A DNA stretch of 64,000 nucleotides from Nocardia exalbida NBRC 100660. GTDB lineage: Bacteria > Actinomycetota > Actinomycetes > Mycobacteriales > Mycobacteriaceae. The notes below the pieces were generated by a model. That model had not been told where the DNA came from, searched no databases, and was given only the letters and a program-made list of their open reading frames with translations. The translations under genes and the position numbers were made by a program. The DNA is taken from NCBI RefSeq assembly GCF_000308575.1, contig NZ_BAFZ01000001.1, positions 62,001 through 126,000 on the forward strand, written 5' to 3'. This document shows positions 44,484-48,773 of this stretch, in pieces. Each line of letters starts with the position of its first letter. The stretch's first letter is position 1.

Positions 44484-44885
44484 CGCCCGCTTCTGGCGCA
44501 GCCCAACTGTTCGGGCCGGGTCCGCGCCCGCTGCCCGCGAGCAAGTACGGGGACGACACCCAACCTCGGCCGGACGCCGCTTCCCAGCGCCTTGCACCCA
44601 AACCACTACTGAGACACGGCCTAGCAGCGTTCATACCGACGCGCGTAGGGCTGCGACCACCCTGGACGTCGCGATAATGGCGGGCAACCGCCGACGCAGA
44701 CCGCGAACCCCGGGCAGTTGCGTGTTATGGGAGTTGCGCGGCCCCCGCAGGCCCGCTGTCCGTAGAGCGCGTTCTACCGCCGTCAGCGGTGTTGCCCACT
44801 GGGCGTGACAGCTCGTTCAAGGTTTCGCTGTGGTCGGCCGCCTGTGCCGGCCGCCGTCGGTCGGCCGCGCCTACAAGTTTGTCGG
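44484..44885. other. intergenic region without recognised features
   Basis: 402 bases between the TIG-domain gene and the sigma factor gene. Several short frames exist on both strands; none has coding character or a ribosome site that I would trust. Confidence 0.45.
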
Positions 44886-45824
44886 CTACCAGGATTCGAT
44901 CAGCGGGGCATCCTGCCGGCGCCGCTGCCATTGTTCGGTGAGGCGGCCCAGGCGGCTCGGGGCGGCGATACCGCGTATGCCCGCGATCTTGTCGTCGCGG
45001 ATCTCCAGGATCGTGACGCCCAGGACCCGGGCCTCGAGTGTGAAGAGCACGGCCGGGCAGCCGTTGATCACGGCGGCATGGACAGCGGGAGAGCCGCCGG
45101 CGAGTTTGTGTTTGGCCGCGGACGGTTTGAAGCCGGCTCGCACCGCACGGGCGATCTGCCCCGGGTTCAGGTAGCGGATCAGCTTCTCGGCCATGCCCGC
45201 GGCGCCGTCGGAGACGCCGGTCGCGTCGTCGGTCAGCAGCGCCACCAGCCGTTCGGTCCGGCCCGAGGAGGCGGCGGCAACGAACGCCTCGACGATGCGG
45301 CGCGCGGAGGCCTGATCGACCTCGGTGCGTTTGCCTGCGGCGGCGATTCGACGCCGGGCTCGGTGCGCGTGTTGCTGACTCCCGGCCTCGGTGATGCCGA
45401 GGATCTCGGCGATCTCGGCGTGGCTGTACGCGAAAGCTTCGCGCAGAACGTAGACAGCTCGCTCGGTCGGCGACAGGCGTTCCATGAGGGTCAGCACCGC
45501 CAGGGTCACCGATTCGCGCTGCTCGGCGGTCTCCGCGGGGCCCAGCATCGGGTCGCCGTCGAGCAGCGGTTCGGGCATCCAGGCGCCGACGGCGCGTTCG
45601 CGCCGCACCTGCGCCGAACGAAGGCGATCGAGGGCCAGATTGGTGACGATCTTGGTCAGCCAAGCTTCGGGGACCTCGACGTACTCCAGGTCGGCGGCCT
45701 GCCACCGCAGGAACGCGTCCTGCACCGTGTCCTCGGCGTCGGCGGCCGAGCCGAGTAGCCGGTAGGCGAGCGAGGCCAGCCGGTTCCGGCTGGCCTCGAA
45801 ACGCGTCACGGTGGCGGTGTTCAT
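44886..45824 (-). CDS. ECF sigma factor, ECF41/SigJ-like with C-terminal SnoaL-like domain
   Basis: 312 residues from ATG 45824. Sigma region 2 is FEASRNRLASLAYRLLGSAADAEDTVQDAFLRW (quoted in part: AYRLLGSAADAEDTVQDAF), region 4 is LSPTERAVYVLREAFAYSHAEIAEILGITEAGSQQ, followed by about 110 residues with a SnoaL-like fold ending in SRLGRLTEQW. This long form is the ECF41 group, where the extension replaces an anti-sigma factor. It lies 10 bases downstream of an FAD oxidoreductase gene, the partner class expected for ECF41. Confidence 0.88.
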   Translation of the reverse strand: MNTATVTRFEASRNRLASLAYRLLGSAADAEDTVQDAFLRWQAADLEYVEVPEAWLTKIVTNLALDRLRSAQVRRERAVGAWMPEPLLDGDPMLGPAETAEQRESVTLAVLTLMERLSPTERAVYVLREAFAYSHAEIAEILGITEAGSQQHAHRARRRIAAAGKRTEVDQASARRIVEAFVAAASSGRTERLVALLTDDATGVSDGAAGMAEKLIRYLNPGQIARAVRAGFKPSAAKHKLAGGSPAVHAAVINGCPAVLFTLEARVLGVTILEIRDDKIAGIRGIAAPSRLGRLTEQWQRRRQDAPLIESW

Positions 45825-45834
45825 GCGCCCGACC

Positions 45835-47025
45835 CTATGCGGTGAGCACTTCGGGCGAGCGCTCTCGCGCGGTCGCCGAGCGGTGCCGGCGACTCGGCAT
45901 TCCGTAGGTCGGTCGGCTGATGGCCCAAGCGCTGGTCGCCACGATCGCCGACTTGACTCGCGCCGCGGGCCTGCCGCACAGGGCCCCGGCCTTCGCGCGC
46001 CCGGCACCGTCGACAAGCTGGAAGATCCCGTCCTCACGTCCGAGGCTGATGTGGTTGCCGACATAGCGCAGCGCGGTCGCCTTGATCTTGCGGCCGGTCA
46101 GATCCCCGACGATCGCGGCCGCCGCCTGCGTGCCGGTGAATCCCGCCGAAGCACACGACATCGGCAACGGCCGACCGTTCGCACCGATGACGAAGACGCT
46201 GTCACCGGCGACGTAGACATCCGGGTGCGAGACCGACCGCATCTGACGGTCTACCGTGATCCGCCCGTCGGCTTCCACCGCGAGACCGCTGGCGGCGGCG
46301 ATCGGGTGGACGGCGAAGCCCGCGGTCCACACGGTCGCATCCGCGGCGAACACGCTGCCGTCGGCGGCGACGGCCTTCGTCTCCTCGACACGCTCGATCT
46401 CGGTGTGCTCGTGGACCGCGATGCCGAACCGCTCGAAGGAACCCAGCAAGTGACGGCGCGCCTTCGGACCCAGCCAACCCCCCAGTTCGCCGCTGGTGAC
46501 CAGGATGACCCGAAGACCGGGACGGGCCTCGGCGATTTCGGCGGCGGCCTCGATCGCGGTCAGGTTACCGCCGACGACCAGCACCTTCCCGTTCTCGCCC
46601 AGCTCATCCAGGCGGGCGCGCAGGCGCAGCGCGGACGGCCGTGCGGCCACGTGGAAGGCGTGCTCGGCGACGCCGGGCACGCCATGGTCGGCGGCGGTGC
46701 TGCCGAGCGCGTAGAGGAGGGTGTCGTATCCGATCCGGTCGATGCCCTCGCCATCGGCCACCGTGACGGTCCGCCGCGCGACGTCGACGTCGGCGACCCG
46801 CGCGACGCGGAGCCGAATTCCGGTGCCCGCGAACACCTCCGCCAGCGGTCGGTGGGGAAGATCGTGCCCCGCGGCGAGCTGGTGCAGGCGCAGCCGCTCG
46901 ACGAAATCGGATTCGGCATTGACGACGGCGATCTCGAAATCGTCGGAGTGCAGCGTGCGGGCCAGATATCCGGCGGTGAAGGCTCCGGCGTATCCGGCTC
47001 CGAGAACGACGATGCGGTGCTTCAT
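45835..47025 (-). CDS. NAD(P)/FAD-dependent oxidoreductase (NDH-2-like), ECF41 partner
   Basis: 396 residues. HRIVVLGAGYAGAFTAGYLA at the N-terminus, a second nucleotide fold VLVVGGNLTAIEAAAEIAEA near residue 150 and a DVYVAGDSVFV motif near residue 270 identify a type II NADH dehydrogenase-like flavoprotein. No C-terminal membrane anchor is obvious. ECF41 sigma factors are typically linked to a carboxymuconolactone decarboxylase, oxidoreductase or epimerase gene that they transcribe. A matching promoter lies at 47058-47084. Confidence 0.88.
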   Translation of the reverse strand: MKHRIVVLGAGYAGAFTAGYLARTLHSDDFEIAVVNAESDFVERLRLHQLAAGHDLPHRPLAEVFAGTGIRLRVARVADVDVARRTVTVADGEGIDRIGYDTLLYALGSTAADHGVPGVAEHAFHVAARPSALRLRARLDELGENGKVLVVGGNLTAIEAAAEIAEARPGLRVILVTSGELGGWLGPKARRHLLGSFERFGIAVHEHTEIERVEETKAVAADGSVFAADATVWTAGFAVHPIAAASGLAVEADGRITVDRQMRSVSHPDVYVAGDSVFVIGANGRPLPMSCASAGFTGTQAAAAIVGDLTGRKIKATALRYVGNHISLGREDGIFQLVDGAGRAKAGALCGRPAARVKSAIVATSAWAISRPTYGMPSRRHRSATARERSPEVLTA

Positions 47026-47057: not shown

Positions 47058-47084
47058 AACGCGACAGCCCCTGAATTCCTGACA
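47058..47084 (-). promoter_or_regulatory. candidate ECF41 promoter toward the oxidoreductase/sigma operon
   Basis: On the minus strand, TGTCAGG, 16 bases, then CGTT, against the described ECF41 pattern TGTCACA-n16-CGTC. It starts about 33 bases upstream of the oxidoreductase ATG. Confidence 0.55.
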
Positions 47085-47111
47085 ACCACCAAAGTGATCT
47101 GCGTCACCAGT

Positions 47112-47138
47112 TGTCAGGAAATTCGTTGCCATGCCATC
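47112..47138 (+). promoter_or_regulatory. candidate second ECF41-type promoter, plus strand
   Basis: TGTCAGG, 16 bases, then CATC, pointing at the small membrane ORF at 47176. The two -35 elements are arms of an inverted repeat GAATTCCTGACAAC / GTTGTCAGGAAATTC (47073-47086 and 47110-47124). Confidence 0.4.
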
Positions 47139-48540
47139 AGGTCGATGAACCCTCTGTAGCGAAGGAGCGGACATCATGATCCCCACCCTGCGCATCGGCT
47201 TCGGCCGCGAGGGCGGAATCCTCCAGCTGCGCTCCACCGCCTTCTTCGAGGGCCACGGCGCCACCCACGCCCTCACCGTCCTTGCCGTCTGGATCGCACT
47301 CGGTGCGGCCCTCTGCCTGACCGGCAGCCCATACTCCCAGCGTCGTCGTCTGCACAGGTCGTGATCCGACGTGCCGGCTTCTGGTCGGCCCGGTATCCGT
47401 CGATCGGGAGACCGACACCGCCATGAGCGTGACGAGGACGGCCAGCACAACAGCGAATGCCACGCCGATCAATCTGCGCGGAATCGGATCCGTGTTCGGA
47501 GTAGGCGGTGGTAGGCCACCGAAGCCGCCGTAGGGTCTGTAGCGCTTCACCGATTCCAATACATATTCGCTCCCACCCGAATATCGGTCGGTGGTGAAGG
47601 AGAAGGTTCCGCCGTCTTTACCCCCGGTGTTGCGGTAGGCTTCGACTTTCAGATCGCAAATGAGGAGTTGGCGTGTACTCGCGTCCCAGCGGGGCCAACC
47701 GCCGGTTTGCTTGTACTTCTCTTGCACCTGGGGATCGACCATGCGCGCGACGAGGAAGACACTTTTGCCGGTGGGATAAATCGCCAATCGGTCGATTTCG
47801 CGCCACGAGAAGCGGTGGACGACGCCGACTTTCCGGACCTCGACTCCGCCCGCATCGATCGCCAGTTTGTCGCCGCGGCTGAGCATGTAGAAGTGTCCGG
47901 CGACGACGGAGACACCGAAGAGCACCGACAGCAGATCGCGCAGTTCGCCGTGCACCCGGAATACGAACCAGACGAACAAGGGGATCGCTGTGCCCGCGAT
48001 CGCCACGTTGAGATAATGACTGGCGTTCTCTCCGGTATCGGGAAAGACGGTACCGCTCTCGACCCTGCGATCCGGGACCGATTGGGCGACCAGACCGTCG
48101 ACGATGCGGATGAGCCTGTCGGTGTCGTCGTCGTAGACCTCCGACCTGATCCTTGCCGTGTTGTGCTCGAGCAGATTCCGGATACTCGGCGGCAATTCGC
48201 CCGGGTGGGGCAATCGGGCGTCATCCACCAGAAGAGGGAGTATCACCTTCCCCAGACGCAGTGCGGTCTCGATTTCCATGCGTACCGGGTCATCGGGGGC
48301 GTGCAACCGGCTCCTGTTGTGGGCGCTGAGCCACTCCGATCCGATGACCACGATGACCACGGCCGACCCGGCGATGGCTTGCACGATCGCCTCACGGAAG
48401 GGCACCCCGACATCGATCGAGTCCCTGTCGAAGAAGGTCAGATCGTCCGGAAGCTCCTTTTCGAAGGTGGCTCGAAGCCGGCCGACGAAGTGGTGTGTGC
48501 CATCTCTGCGATAGCTGAGAAATATCCGATAGCGATTCAC
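47137..48540 (-). CDS. TIR-domain protein with transmembrane and PH-like regions
   Basis: 467 residues from GTG 48540; a start at 48615 is also possible. The TIR domain is RIFLSYRRDGTHHFVGRLRATF, TFFDRDSIDVG, VIVVIGSEWL and RMEIETALRLGKVILPLL, with a Glu in the helix where TIR NADases carry the catalytic one. Two membrane segments follow (YLNVAIAGTAIPLFVWFVF; LLSVLFGVSVVAGHFYML), then a PH-like domain (LAIDAGGVEVRKVG, WREIDRLAIYP) and a third membrane segment (GVAFAVVLAVLVTLMAVSV). The last ~70 residues lie antisense to the small ORF at 47176 and look non-native. Role unknown; NAD cleavage or signalling is possible. Confidence 0.8.
   Translation of the reverse strand: MNRYRIFLSYRRDGTHHFVGRLRATFEKELPDDLTFFDRDSIDVGVPFREAIVQAIAGSAVVIVVIGSEWLSAHNRSRLHAPDDPVRMEIETALRLGKVILPLLVDDARLPHPGELPPSIRNLLEHNTARIRSEVYDDDTDRLIRIVDGLVAQSVPDRRVESGTVFPDTGENASHYLNVAIAGTAIPLFVWFVFRVHGELRDLLSVLFGVSVVAGHFYMLSRGDKLAIDAGGVEVRKVGVVHRFSWREIDRLAIYPTGKSVFLVARMVDPQVQEKYKQTGGWPRWDASTRQLLICDLKVEAYRNTGGKDGGTFSFTTDRYSGGSEYVLESVKRYRPYGGFGGLPPPTPNTDPIPRRLIGVAFAVVLAVLVTLMAVSVSRSTDTGPTRSRHVGSRPVQTTTLGVWAAGQAEGRTECDPDGKDGEGVGGAVALEEGGGAQLEDSALAAEADAQGGDHDVRSFATEGSST
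47176..47364 (+). CDS. small membrane protein, candidate ECF41-regulated
   Basis: 62 residues with GAAGGAG upstream of the ATG. The N-terminal 28 residues are amphipathic (LRIGFGREGGILQL) and one hydrophobic segment follows, ALTVLAVWIALGAALCLTG, with a basic C-terminus. Third positions are almost all G or C, stronger than in the overlapping minus-strand frame, which argues for this strand. It lies about 37 bases downstream of a TGTCAGG-n16-CATC promoter-like element. No family is recognised. Confidence 0.55.
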   Translation: MIPTLRIGFGREGGILQLRSTAFFEGHGATHALTVLAVWIALGAALCLTGSPYSQRRRLHRS

Positions 48541-48773
48541 GTACCCCCGGCCTTCCCCCGCAGGAGAGCTGCTACCGAGCCCTCGACACATGGCGAGATC
48601 TTGAACGGCCATCATTATGGCGTAGCCGAACAGAGAATGTCGGCCGGTGGCGATTTTTCCGCCATTTTTCGGATGCCCGAAACTACATCTGCGTCCCGAC
48701 CGCGGCGGCGGTGAAGTTACGCCGATCGTCGCTTCTTCACCCGGGTGTGACCGTCCGGCGAGAGGATGGGCCG

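What the first reader, a model, noticed from the sequence alone, without database searches (positions are those of the whole stretch)
47058..47364. Candidate bidirectional ECF41 promoter and a new small membrane protein in its control
An inverted repeat supplies two TGTCAGG -35 elements facing outward, each with a plausible -10 at exactly 16 bases (CGTT toward the oxidoreductase, CATC toward the 62-residue ORF) and similar leader lengths (about 30 bases). ECF41 units are usually described with one target promoter, so a divergent small membrane protein would be new.
Basis: partly seen in the sequence, partly recalled or inferred. Interest (0 to 1): 0.5.

Follow-up and report, generated by a model that had tools for sequence, protein, structure and literature searches.

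The report
Divergent ECF41 promoters, one gene decayed
The DNA does contain two back-to-back promoters of a known kind of sigma factor, but the supposed new small membrane protein on one side is the leftover stump of a larger membrane protein gene that a close relative still carries whole.

Summary
Both outward TGTCAGG boxes with 16-base spacers are real, and relatives show what they are. In this genus (Nocardia by named matches) the oxidoreductase gene oxA (here followed by the ECF41-like sigma gene sigA) sometimes faces a second ECF41 unit, oxB-sigB-mem; mem is a 331-residue, weakly ABC-2-like membrane protein. Each side has an ECF41-type promoter; the plus box is the second unit's. The 62-residue ORF is no new small protein: its last 44 residues are the C-terminus of mem and its first 18 a relic of oxB. 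N. gamkensis keeps mem whole behind the same promoter; a 923-base deletion fused the ends here. The plus -10 (CATC) departs from the [CT]GTC of the 8 other divergent boxes found in 51 distinct oxA upstream regions. So a two-way ECF41 promoter region is well supported in relatives, while its plus arm looks like a decaying relic here. Unexpected: a CRP-like dyad stands at fixed spacing upstream of the -35 in 43 of 51 oxA and 19 of 21 oxB regions; here both promoters share one. No transcription was measured; that one sigma reads both arms, that Crp binds, and that the relic is inert are inferences.

The parts
47058..47084 (-). ECF41-type promoter of oxA (-35 TGTCAGG 47084-47078, 16-base spacer, -10 CGTT 47061-47058)
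   Evidence: TGTCAG with [CT]GT[CT] at 16 bases in 50 of 51 distinct oxA upstream regions, window included
47094..47107 (.). CRP/FNR-type dyad GTGATCTGCGTCAC, 4 bases from the plus -35 and 9 bases from the minus -35
   Evidence: unchanged from N. gamkensis (0 of 14 differences); exact dyad at gap 9-10 in 43 of 51 oxA regions and at gap 4 in 19 of 21 oxB regions
47112..47138 (+). decaying ECF41-type promoter of the lost second unit (-35 TGTCAGG 47112-47118, 16-base spacer, -10 CATC 47135-47138)
   Evidence: N. gamkensis has CGTC at the same place
47176..47225 (+). leader of the 62-aa ORF: relic of the C-terminal part of a second oxidoreductase (oxB)
   Evidence: matches oxB residues 314-329, score 45, 0 of 300 shuffles reach it (the same piece scores 38 against oxA, 1 of 300); the N. 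gamkensis counterpart scores 64 against oxB, 0 of 1000 shuffles
47226..47364 (+). relic of mem: last 44 codons and stop of a ~331-aa ABC-2-like membrane protein; junction at 47225/47226 with 3 bases of microhomology (GCT)
45835..47025 (-). oxA: FAD/NAD(P)-dependent pyridine nucleotide-disulphide oxidoreductase, 396 aa, intact
   Evidence: Pfam PF07992 E 3.7e-36
44886..45824 (-). sigA: ECF41/SigJ-like ECF sigma factor with C-terminal extension, 312 aa, intact
   Evidence: TIGR02957 270 bits, PRK09636 (SigJ) 262 bits, both below the curated cut-offs of 323 and 271
47137..48615 (-). convergent TIR-domain gene; its 3' end runs antisense across the whole relic ORF because the deletion removed the stop used in N. 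gamkensis
   Evidence: TIR_2 E 8.7e-10; 492 aa here, 471 aa in N. gamkensis

Best explanation
The site is the divergent control region between the oxA-sigA unit and what is left of a second ECF41 unit. On the minus side an ECF41-type promoter drives oxA and then sigA. On the plus side an equivalent promoter once drove a unit of the oxB-sigB-mem kind. That unit eroded: oxB was deleted down to a short leader and sigB is gone, leaving mem directly behind the promoter (the state still seen in N. gamkensis); then a 923-base deletion removed most of mem and joined the leader to its last 44 codons. The 62-residue ORF is that scar, and the plus-strand -10 has drifted. Most likely mechanism in relatives with an intact plus side: one ECF41 sigma factor, released by an unknown signal, reads both divergent promoters, helped by a CRP-like activator at the dyad between them. 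Shown: the anatomy, the homology of both ORF halves, the intact counterpart, the deletion, the conserved motifs and spacings. Inferred: that sigB once stood at this site (no relic of it was found), that SigA reads the plus box, that Crp binds the dyad, and that the relic is without function.
For: In 148 same-genus genomes 69 (own included) match the ORF; the matches outside the own copy lie within residues 8-61 and inside longer frames of 199-692 aa, of which those read through are mem proteins with the match at the C-terminal end. In G117 (= L161, Nocardia gamkensis NBRC 108242) the full 331-aa gene stands behind the same plus promoter and leader; alignment shows one 923-base gap, with blastn identity of 95.0 and 96.4% on its two sides. 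Leader relic of oxB. oxA faces a complete oxB-sigB-mem in L073, L074, L076; the plus side has lost oxB in L075, L077, L107 and keeps only mem in L079 and L040. All 8 other divergent boxes keep [CT]GTC at 16 bases; only the window has CATC. Own promoters: 50 of 51 oxA and 20 of 21 oxB regions have TGTCAG with [CT]GT[CT] at exactly 16. In 8 of the 9 divergent loci only one of sigA/sigB lies beside the pair (sigB only in L073, L074, L075, L076, L107, with 2.5-5.1 kb beyond oxA held; sigA only in L040, L079 and the window); L077 has both. Divergence from N. gamkensis is high in the plus-side leader (6 of 37), leader ORF (6 of 50) and ORF tail (6 of 36) against 39 of 1188 in oxA.
Against: The -35 box, the dyad, the Shine-Dalgarno and the open frame are intact, and the transmembrane part of the relic has few changes (5 of 100 bases). 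The 44 C-terminal codons alone do not differ significantly from flanking genes in nonsynonymous share (Fisher P 0.33; whole ORF P 0.034). So a translated stump cannot be excluded. The mem of N. gamkensis does not group with those of the complete head-to-head loci L073/L074/L193 (the divergent label needs 5 changes, at least 4 forced), so the arrangement formed, or was lost, more than once. No locus examined has both complete units, oxA-sigA and oxB-sigB-mem, head to head. L107 has no TGTCAG on the oxA side and a further ECF41-like gene about 5 kb away. Only one close relative was available.
Confidence: 0.85

Rival explanations
1. One reading: an active bidirectional ECF41 promoter makes a functional small membrane protein of 62 residues, now a microprotein derived from mem.
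For: Box, spacer, Shine-Dalgarno and frame are intact; one clear transmembrane stretch; the membrane segment has changed little from N. gamkensis mem.
Against: Among the matches listed for 150 same-genus genomes (a list that was cut) none at high identity spans the joint: the closest, G117, matches in two separate pieces, and two weak ones (G004 76%, G042 73%) that run about 30 bases across it lie inside full-length mem genes. Plus -10 is CATC. The ORF as a whole has a raised nonsynonymous share (11 N: 6 S against about 50: 88 in four flanking genes, P 0.034). The deletion of 923 bases is not a multiple of three, so the joined open frame had about a one-in-three chance of arising by accident.
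Confidence: 0.08
2. The plus box is still a working ECF41 promoter, but its product is only an RNA that runs antisense into the convergent TIR gene (47137-48615, minus), not a protein of use.
For: TGTCAGG, 16-base spacer and dyad are kept (0 of 14 differences from N. gamkensis in the dyad, 2 of 31 in 47108-47138); the TIR frame overlaps the whole ORF.
Against: CATC lacks the GT core found in 70 of 70 own promoters with a box and in 8 of 8 other divergent boxes; the leader after it is diverging fast.
Confidence: 0.2
3. The inverted repeat is an operator for one DNA-binding protein, not a pair of promoters.
For: The arms CCTGACAAC / GTTGTCAGG are symmetrical, and a second dyad lies between them.
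Against: The distance between the two boxes varies widely in the 8 loci that have both (27, 27, 33, 33, 34, 70, 119, 127 bases), while each box keeps its exact 16-base distance to a -10 and its own distance to a dyad; 42 of 51 oxA regions have no divergent TGTCAG box at all.
Confidence: 0.05

Closest known systems
ECF41 loci of Wecke et al. 2012 (PMC3426412; abstract and sections 20, 21, 24, 25 read)
   Same: ECF sigma with C-terminal extension, next to an oxidoreductase; TGTCA -35, 16 +/- 1 spacer, CGTC or TGTT -10; order oxidoreductase then sigma with the promoter before the oxidoreductase; divergent promoters known for <ECF< >COE>.
   Different: -35 here is TGTCAGG, not TGTCACA; oxA faces a second ECF41 unit or its relic; that unit has a third gene, mem, which is not among the three named target classes (carboxymuconolactone decarboxylases, oxidoreductases, epimerases), though the survey also lists unnamed hypothetical neighbours in a supplement I could not see; a CRP-like dyad lies at fixed spacing (CRP: 0 occurrences in that paper).
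SigJ/SigI of Mycobacterium tuberculosis (ECF41 group; passages of PMC8999054 read)
   Same: Best NCBIfam relatives of sigA after SigX4 are PRK09636 SigJ and PRK09635 SigI.
   Different: sigA scores just below the SigJ cut-off (261.9 against 271) and has WMPEP where ECF41 has WLPEP (seen).
N. gamkensis and N. veterana loci (L161/L040, L205/L079) and Kribbella sp. ALI-6-A (L167)
   Same: sigA and oxA on one strand and, divergently, an ECF41-type promoter followed by mem.
   Different: mem is full length there; in the window it is reduced to its last 44 codons.
ABC-2 type membrane proteins (Pfam PF12698)
   Same: mem: one N-terminal helix, an outer domain of about 100 residues, then further helices in the AlphaFold model (mean pLDDT 71.5); PF12698 E 6.9e-7 in the L073 copy, 0.012 in N. 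gamkensis.
   Different: Both scores are below the curated cut-off; Foldseek against PDB gives nothing at E <= 0.001 (best ABCA7, 0.011); no ATPase partner was looked for.

Membership tests
ECF41 sigma factor (sigA, 44886-45824) | sigma2 and sigma4 regions of an ECF sigma factor | tested here: met
   PF04542 E 9.8e-15 and PF08281 E 2.1e-15
ECF41 sigma factor (sigA, 44886-45824) | C-terminal extension of about 100 residues with conserved motifs | tested here: inconclusive
   About 150 residues follow sigma4 and align to near the end of TIGR02957 and the SigJ model, but no SnoaL Pfam match at E <= 0.001
ECF41 sigma factor (sigA, 44886-45824) | WLPEP motif between sigma2 and sigma4 (Wecke et al.) | tested here: inconclusive
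   sigA reads WMPEP; the sigB of L073 reads WLPEP
ECF41 sigma factor (sigA, 44886-45824) | curated family score | tested here: not met
   270.1 bits against 323.25 (TIGR02957) and 261.9 against 271 (PRK09636); hence called ECF41-like
ECF41 locus | oxidoreductase, decarboxylase or epimerase gene next to the sigma gene | tested here: met
   oxA has PF07992, E 3.7e-36, and ends next to sigA
ECF41-dependent promoter, minus arm | TGTCA -35, 16 +/- 1 spacer, [CT]GT[CT] -10 | tested here: met
   TGTCAGG-N16-CGTT
ECF41-dependent promoter, plus arm | TGTCA -35, 16 +/- 1 spacer, [CT]GT[CT] -10 | tested here: not met
   -35 and spacer met, -10 is CATC; it resembles a decayed ECF41 promoter
ECF41-dependent promoter | transcription depends on the sigma factor | not testable with these tools
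   needs 5' end mapping or reporter fusions
CRP binding site (47094-47107) | TGTGA-N6-TCACA palindrome (PMC4117774, passages read) | tested here: inconclusive
   Inner GTGA-N6-TCAC exact; the outer T and A are absent here (AGTGA...TCACC) but present in other loci such as L073
CRP binding site (47094-47107) | a Crp protein with a matching recognition helix in the genome | tested here: met
   G000:C161 ORF ...GASRETVNKALADF...; that RETV is the recognition helix is recalled, not from a call
functional small membrane protein | independent conservation as a short ORF | tested here: not met
   In one search (148 same-genus genomes) only the own genome matches residues 1-62; the other matches lie in longer frames. 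In one search (150 genomes, listing cut) no high-identity match spans the joint

The most novel reading that the evidence does not exclude
A single ECF41 sigma factor serves two divergent transcription units at once: an oxidoreductase on one side and an ABC-2-like membrane protein (with or without a second oxidoreductase) on the other, and in compact loci the two promoters share one CRP-type activator site, so that the unknown signal sensed by the sigma factor and a cAMP (nutritional) signal are combined. The oxA promoter with its dyad is old in Actinobacteria (same box, spacer and dyad in Streptomyces and Microbispora, weaker dyad in Kribbella), and sigB has been lost in at least three loci (N. 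gamkensis, N. veterana, Kribbella) while mem stayed behind its ECF41-type promoter; the window shows the next step of decay.
Probability: 0.4. Interest if true: 0.55.

Novelty: new variant of a known kind. Interest (0 to 1): 0.36.

Why it matters
Wecke et al. [quoted passage not shown] a wider ECF41 regulon has since been reported in Azospirillum (title seen only in reference lists). Loci in which one ECF41 gene sits beside two divergent ECF41-type promoters, with a membrane protein as the recurring extra gene and a CRP-like site at fixed spacing, give a concrete set of targets and two inputs to test. The correction matters too: small ORFs behind good-looking promoters can be deletion scars, and only comparison with relatives shows it.

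Tried and rejected
A motif search of the own genome for TGTCAGG-N16-CRT was no better than its reversed control (8 against 10), so motif matches alone were given no weight. The idea that the ORF is an orphan microprotein was dropped. Pfam and NCBIfam gave nothing for the 62-aa ORF at E <= 0.001. My first codon comparison of the leader with N. gamkensis ('leader' row) and the first shuffle test of the gamkensis leader used a start one base off; both were thrown out and redone. A first look at the Crp ORF read the wrong strand; redone. The overlapping TIR frame shows 11 nonsynonymous to 1 synonymous change in its antisense tail, so it does not explain conservation of the ORF. A relic of sigB in the gamkensis leader was looked for and not found (score 24, 375 of 1000 shuffles reach it). 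Fold search of mem gave no significant PDB match. A story of one ancestral head-to-head pair was not upheld by the mem tree, so I do not claim a single origin. PF13545 hits below the best one were not followed. The third oxA-like unit on G000:C42 (L143) was fetched but not analysed beyond a motif scan that printed no match.

Counts and their limits: the 51 oxA and 21 oxB upstream regions are the distinct ones among loci I held then (matches of at least 65% identity starting at residue 1 or 2; identical upstream regions counted once), not all genomes, and several loci were fetched because oxA and mem lay close together, so 9 of 51 is not a frequency in the genus. One oxA region (L107) and one oxB region (L082) have no TGTCAG in the expected place. 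Of 19 non-Nocardia loci with an oxA-like match I examined 14. The 80 mem loci are the best 80 of 148 found. The background rate of the dyad was taken over all loci held, promoters included.

Full report
What is there. The window lies in a 7.37-Mb draft genome at C164:62001-126000; its relatives are Nocardia species by the record titles of the best matches. Two TGTCAGG boxes face outward, 27 bases apart. The minus one (47084-47078) has CGTT at 16 bases and leads to oxA (45835-47025, FAD/NAD(P) oxidoreductase) and then sigA (44886-45824, ECF41/SigJ-like). The plus one (47112-47118) has CATC at 16 bases and leads to the 62-codon ORF 47176-47364. The local pairing is more than chance (0.13 such sites expected per 64 kb, 2 seen), although the motif by itself is no more frequent in the genome than its reversed control.

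What the ORF is. A search of 148 same-genus genomes found matches in 69, the own genome included. Apart from the own copy the matches lie within residues 8-61 of the ORF and inside longer frames (199-692 aa). Frames read through on the right strand showed a membrane protein of about 331 residues, here called mem, whose last part is the matching piece. Many of the weaker matches (E 1e-5 to 1e-3) come from a more distant family, such as L112, 39.5% identical to mem. In G117, identified as Nocardia gamkensis NBRC 108242 by the identical locus L161, the same promoter region and leader are followed by an intact mem (L040 6422-7417). Alignment shows one 923-base gap in the window with 3 bases of microhomology (GCT) at the junction. 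Because 923 is not a multiple of three, the deletion brought the mem tail into the frame of the leader. The leader itself is a relic: in N. gamkensis MIPPLRTGFGRDAGIFQLGRK... matches the C-terminal part of a second oxidoreductase, oxB (score 64, 0 of 1000 shuffles reach it), and the window's leader does too (score 45, 0 of 300). So the ORF is a scar made of two gene ends.

Where the second unit comes from. The own genome has, on contig C77 (L039), an ECF41-type promoter followed by oxB, an ECF41 sigma gene (sigB, split by a frameshift) and mem on one strand. In relatives oxA and such a unit sometimes face each other. The plus side is complete (oxB-sigB-mem) in L073, L074 and L076; oxB is missing in L075, L077 and L107; only mem is left in L079 (N. 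veterana) and L040 (N. gamkensis); and only the stump is left in the window. In the five loci L073, L074, L075, L076 and L107 oxA has no sigA behind it (2.5-5.1 kb held), so no locus examined has both complete units face to face. Tandem (for example L078, L080, L094) and convergent (L081) pairs also occur. Outside the genus, Kribbella sp. ALI-6-A (L167) has sigA and oxA facing away from mem, an ECF41-type promoter before mem, and a piece of a sigB C-terminus left in between (score 62, 0 of 300 shuffles). No such sigB piece was found at the N. gamkensis site. A tree of 92 mem proteins puts the 9 oxA-divergent rows in several places (5 changes needed, at least 4 forced by well-supported branches), so the arrangement arose or was lost more than once.

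The promoters. Of 51 distinct oxA upstream regions in hand, 50 have TGTCAG in the expected place and all 50 have [CT]GT[CT] exactly 16 bases after the 7-base box; for oxB it is 20 of 21 and 20 of 20. A divergent TGTCAG box is found in 9 of the 51 oxA regions, each of them a locus with a second-unit gene or relic on the other side; 8 have CGTC or TGTC at 16, the window alone has CATC. In L107 the oxA side itself lacks TGTCAG. In 8 of these 9 loci only one of the two sigma genes lies beside the pair (sigB only in L073, L074, L075, L076, L107; sigA only in L040, L079 and the window), L077 has both. This is the best comparative sign that one ECF41 factor reads both directions. It is not proof: the own genome has 11 other matches above 150 bits to the SigX4 model besides sigA and sigB, and L107 has a further ECF41-like gene about 5 kb away. 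Wecke et al. (PMC3426412; outline and abstract, sections 20, 21, 24, 25) give TGTCACA, 16 +/- 1, CGTC as the ECF41 motif, with TGTT also found by 5' mapping, and describe divergent sigma/target pairs with the motif before both genes; so a two-way ECF41 promoter is not new as a kind.

Decay of the plus side. Against N. gamkensis, oxA differs at 39 of 1188 bases; the dyad at 0 of 14; the plus promoter at 2 of 31, one of them in the -10; the plus leader at 6 of 37; the leader ORF at 6 of 50; the mem tail at 11 of 139, six of these in the last 36 coding bases; the stretch after the ORF at 1 of 136. Nei-Gojobori ratios are 0.14 (sigA), 0.30 (oxA), 0.13 (TIR gene), 0.25 (GDPD) and 0.43 for the mem tail. 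The leader has 5 nonsynonymous and 1 synonymous change, the mem tail 6 and 5; together 11 to 6 against about 50 to 88 in the four flanking genes (Fisher P 0.034), while the mem tail alone is not significant (P 0.33). The data favour relaxed constraint but are few.

An unexpected conserved element. GTGA-N6-TCAC stands 9 or 10 bases upstream of the -35 in 43 of 51 oxA regions and 4 bases upstream in 19 of 21 oxB regions, against 0.00013 per base over all loci held. In 14 examined oxA regions of Streptomyces, Microbispora, Micromonospora and Kribbella (14 of 19 non-Nocardia ones), all 14 have TGTCAG with CGCT at 16; at a gap of 10 or 11 bases the dyad is exact in 8, has one mismatch in 5 and two in 1, Kribbella. 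Divergent loci with widely spaced boxes L073, L076 and L079 have two exact dyads; the compressed ones (window, L040, L074, L077) share one; L107 has one exact dyad and L075 none. The pattern is that of CRP (TGTGAN6TCACA; passage of PMC4117774), and the genome encodes a Crp with GASRETVNKALADF. Binding is not shown. In the library held no paper contains both ECF41 and 'cAMP receptor protein'; a looser search listed one paper with ECF41 and CRP, PMC11837500, whose passages are unrelated; a search for ECF sigma factor with CRP, cAMP and TGTGA showed no title on such a combination among 15 of 44 listed.

What mem is. It is weakly ABC-2-like (PF12698 E 6.9e-7 and 0.012, below cut-off); the model has an N-terminal helix, an outer domain and a further helix bundle (mean pLDDT 71.5) without a significant PDB match. 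Of the best 80 of 148 mem loci found in one scan of species genomes, 42 have an ECF41-like sigma gene within 3.5 kb, 2 have only an oxidoreductase and 36 neither; 12 loci, all Streptomyces or Microbispora, have oxA-mem-sigA in one row. So mem is a recurring but not constant partner of ECF41 units. It is not one of the three target classes named in the 2012 survey; whether it is among that survey's unnamed hypothetical neighbours I could not check.

Verdict. The divergent promoter pair is real and worth testing in relatives with an intact mem; the small membrane protein of the finding is a deletion scar, and the plus arm in this genome is probably failing. No expression data were available. On checking, the odds of the best explanation were moved from 0.86 to 0.85, because two complete units are never seen head to head and no sigB relic was found at this site.

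Noticed in passing
L039 8585-9420 (G000:C77): The own genome's second ECF41 gene, sigB, is split: TIGR02957 positions 1-212 and 206-280 match in different frames, so the end of its regulatory C-terminal extension is out of frame (or the draft has an error).
   Followed up: partly
L039 10964-10989 (+): An oxA-type promoter (TGTCAGGAAATCGGGGGCTGTCTCGTTC) faces away from oxB on C77 with no oxA behind it, next to an ORF that looks like a transposase fragment (by eye). With the window this suggests mirror-image loss, C77 keeping the oxB unit and C164 the oxA unit.
   Followed up: partly
window 44727-44765: The last 39 bases of a 977-aa gene of N. gamkensis (L040 962-3895; TIR-like start by eye, no family search) remain here at 100% identity; no other part of that gene aligns anywhere in the window, so a second deletion lies beside sigA.
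   Followed up: partly
L182 5875-6003 (N. vermiculata): mem stands directly behind an oxA-type ECF41 promoter with no oxidoreductase or sigma match in the fetched 13 kb: an orphan target.
   Followed up: no
L041 6070-8230 (G120): oxA is followed by the first 33 codons of sigA, then mem, then a complete sigA, as if mem had been inserted with a partial duplication of the sigma gene.
   Followed up: no
L174, L180, L198, L213 upstream of mem: In Actinoplanes and relatives mem has no ECF41-like gene nearby but inverted GAACG-CGTTC repeats before it and, by eye, in some a divergent TetR-like gene.
   Followed up: no
window 47137-48615 (-): TIR-domain protein gene whose reading frame gained a longer, unconstrained tail because the mem deletion removed its former stop.
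   Followed up: partly
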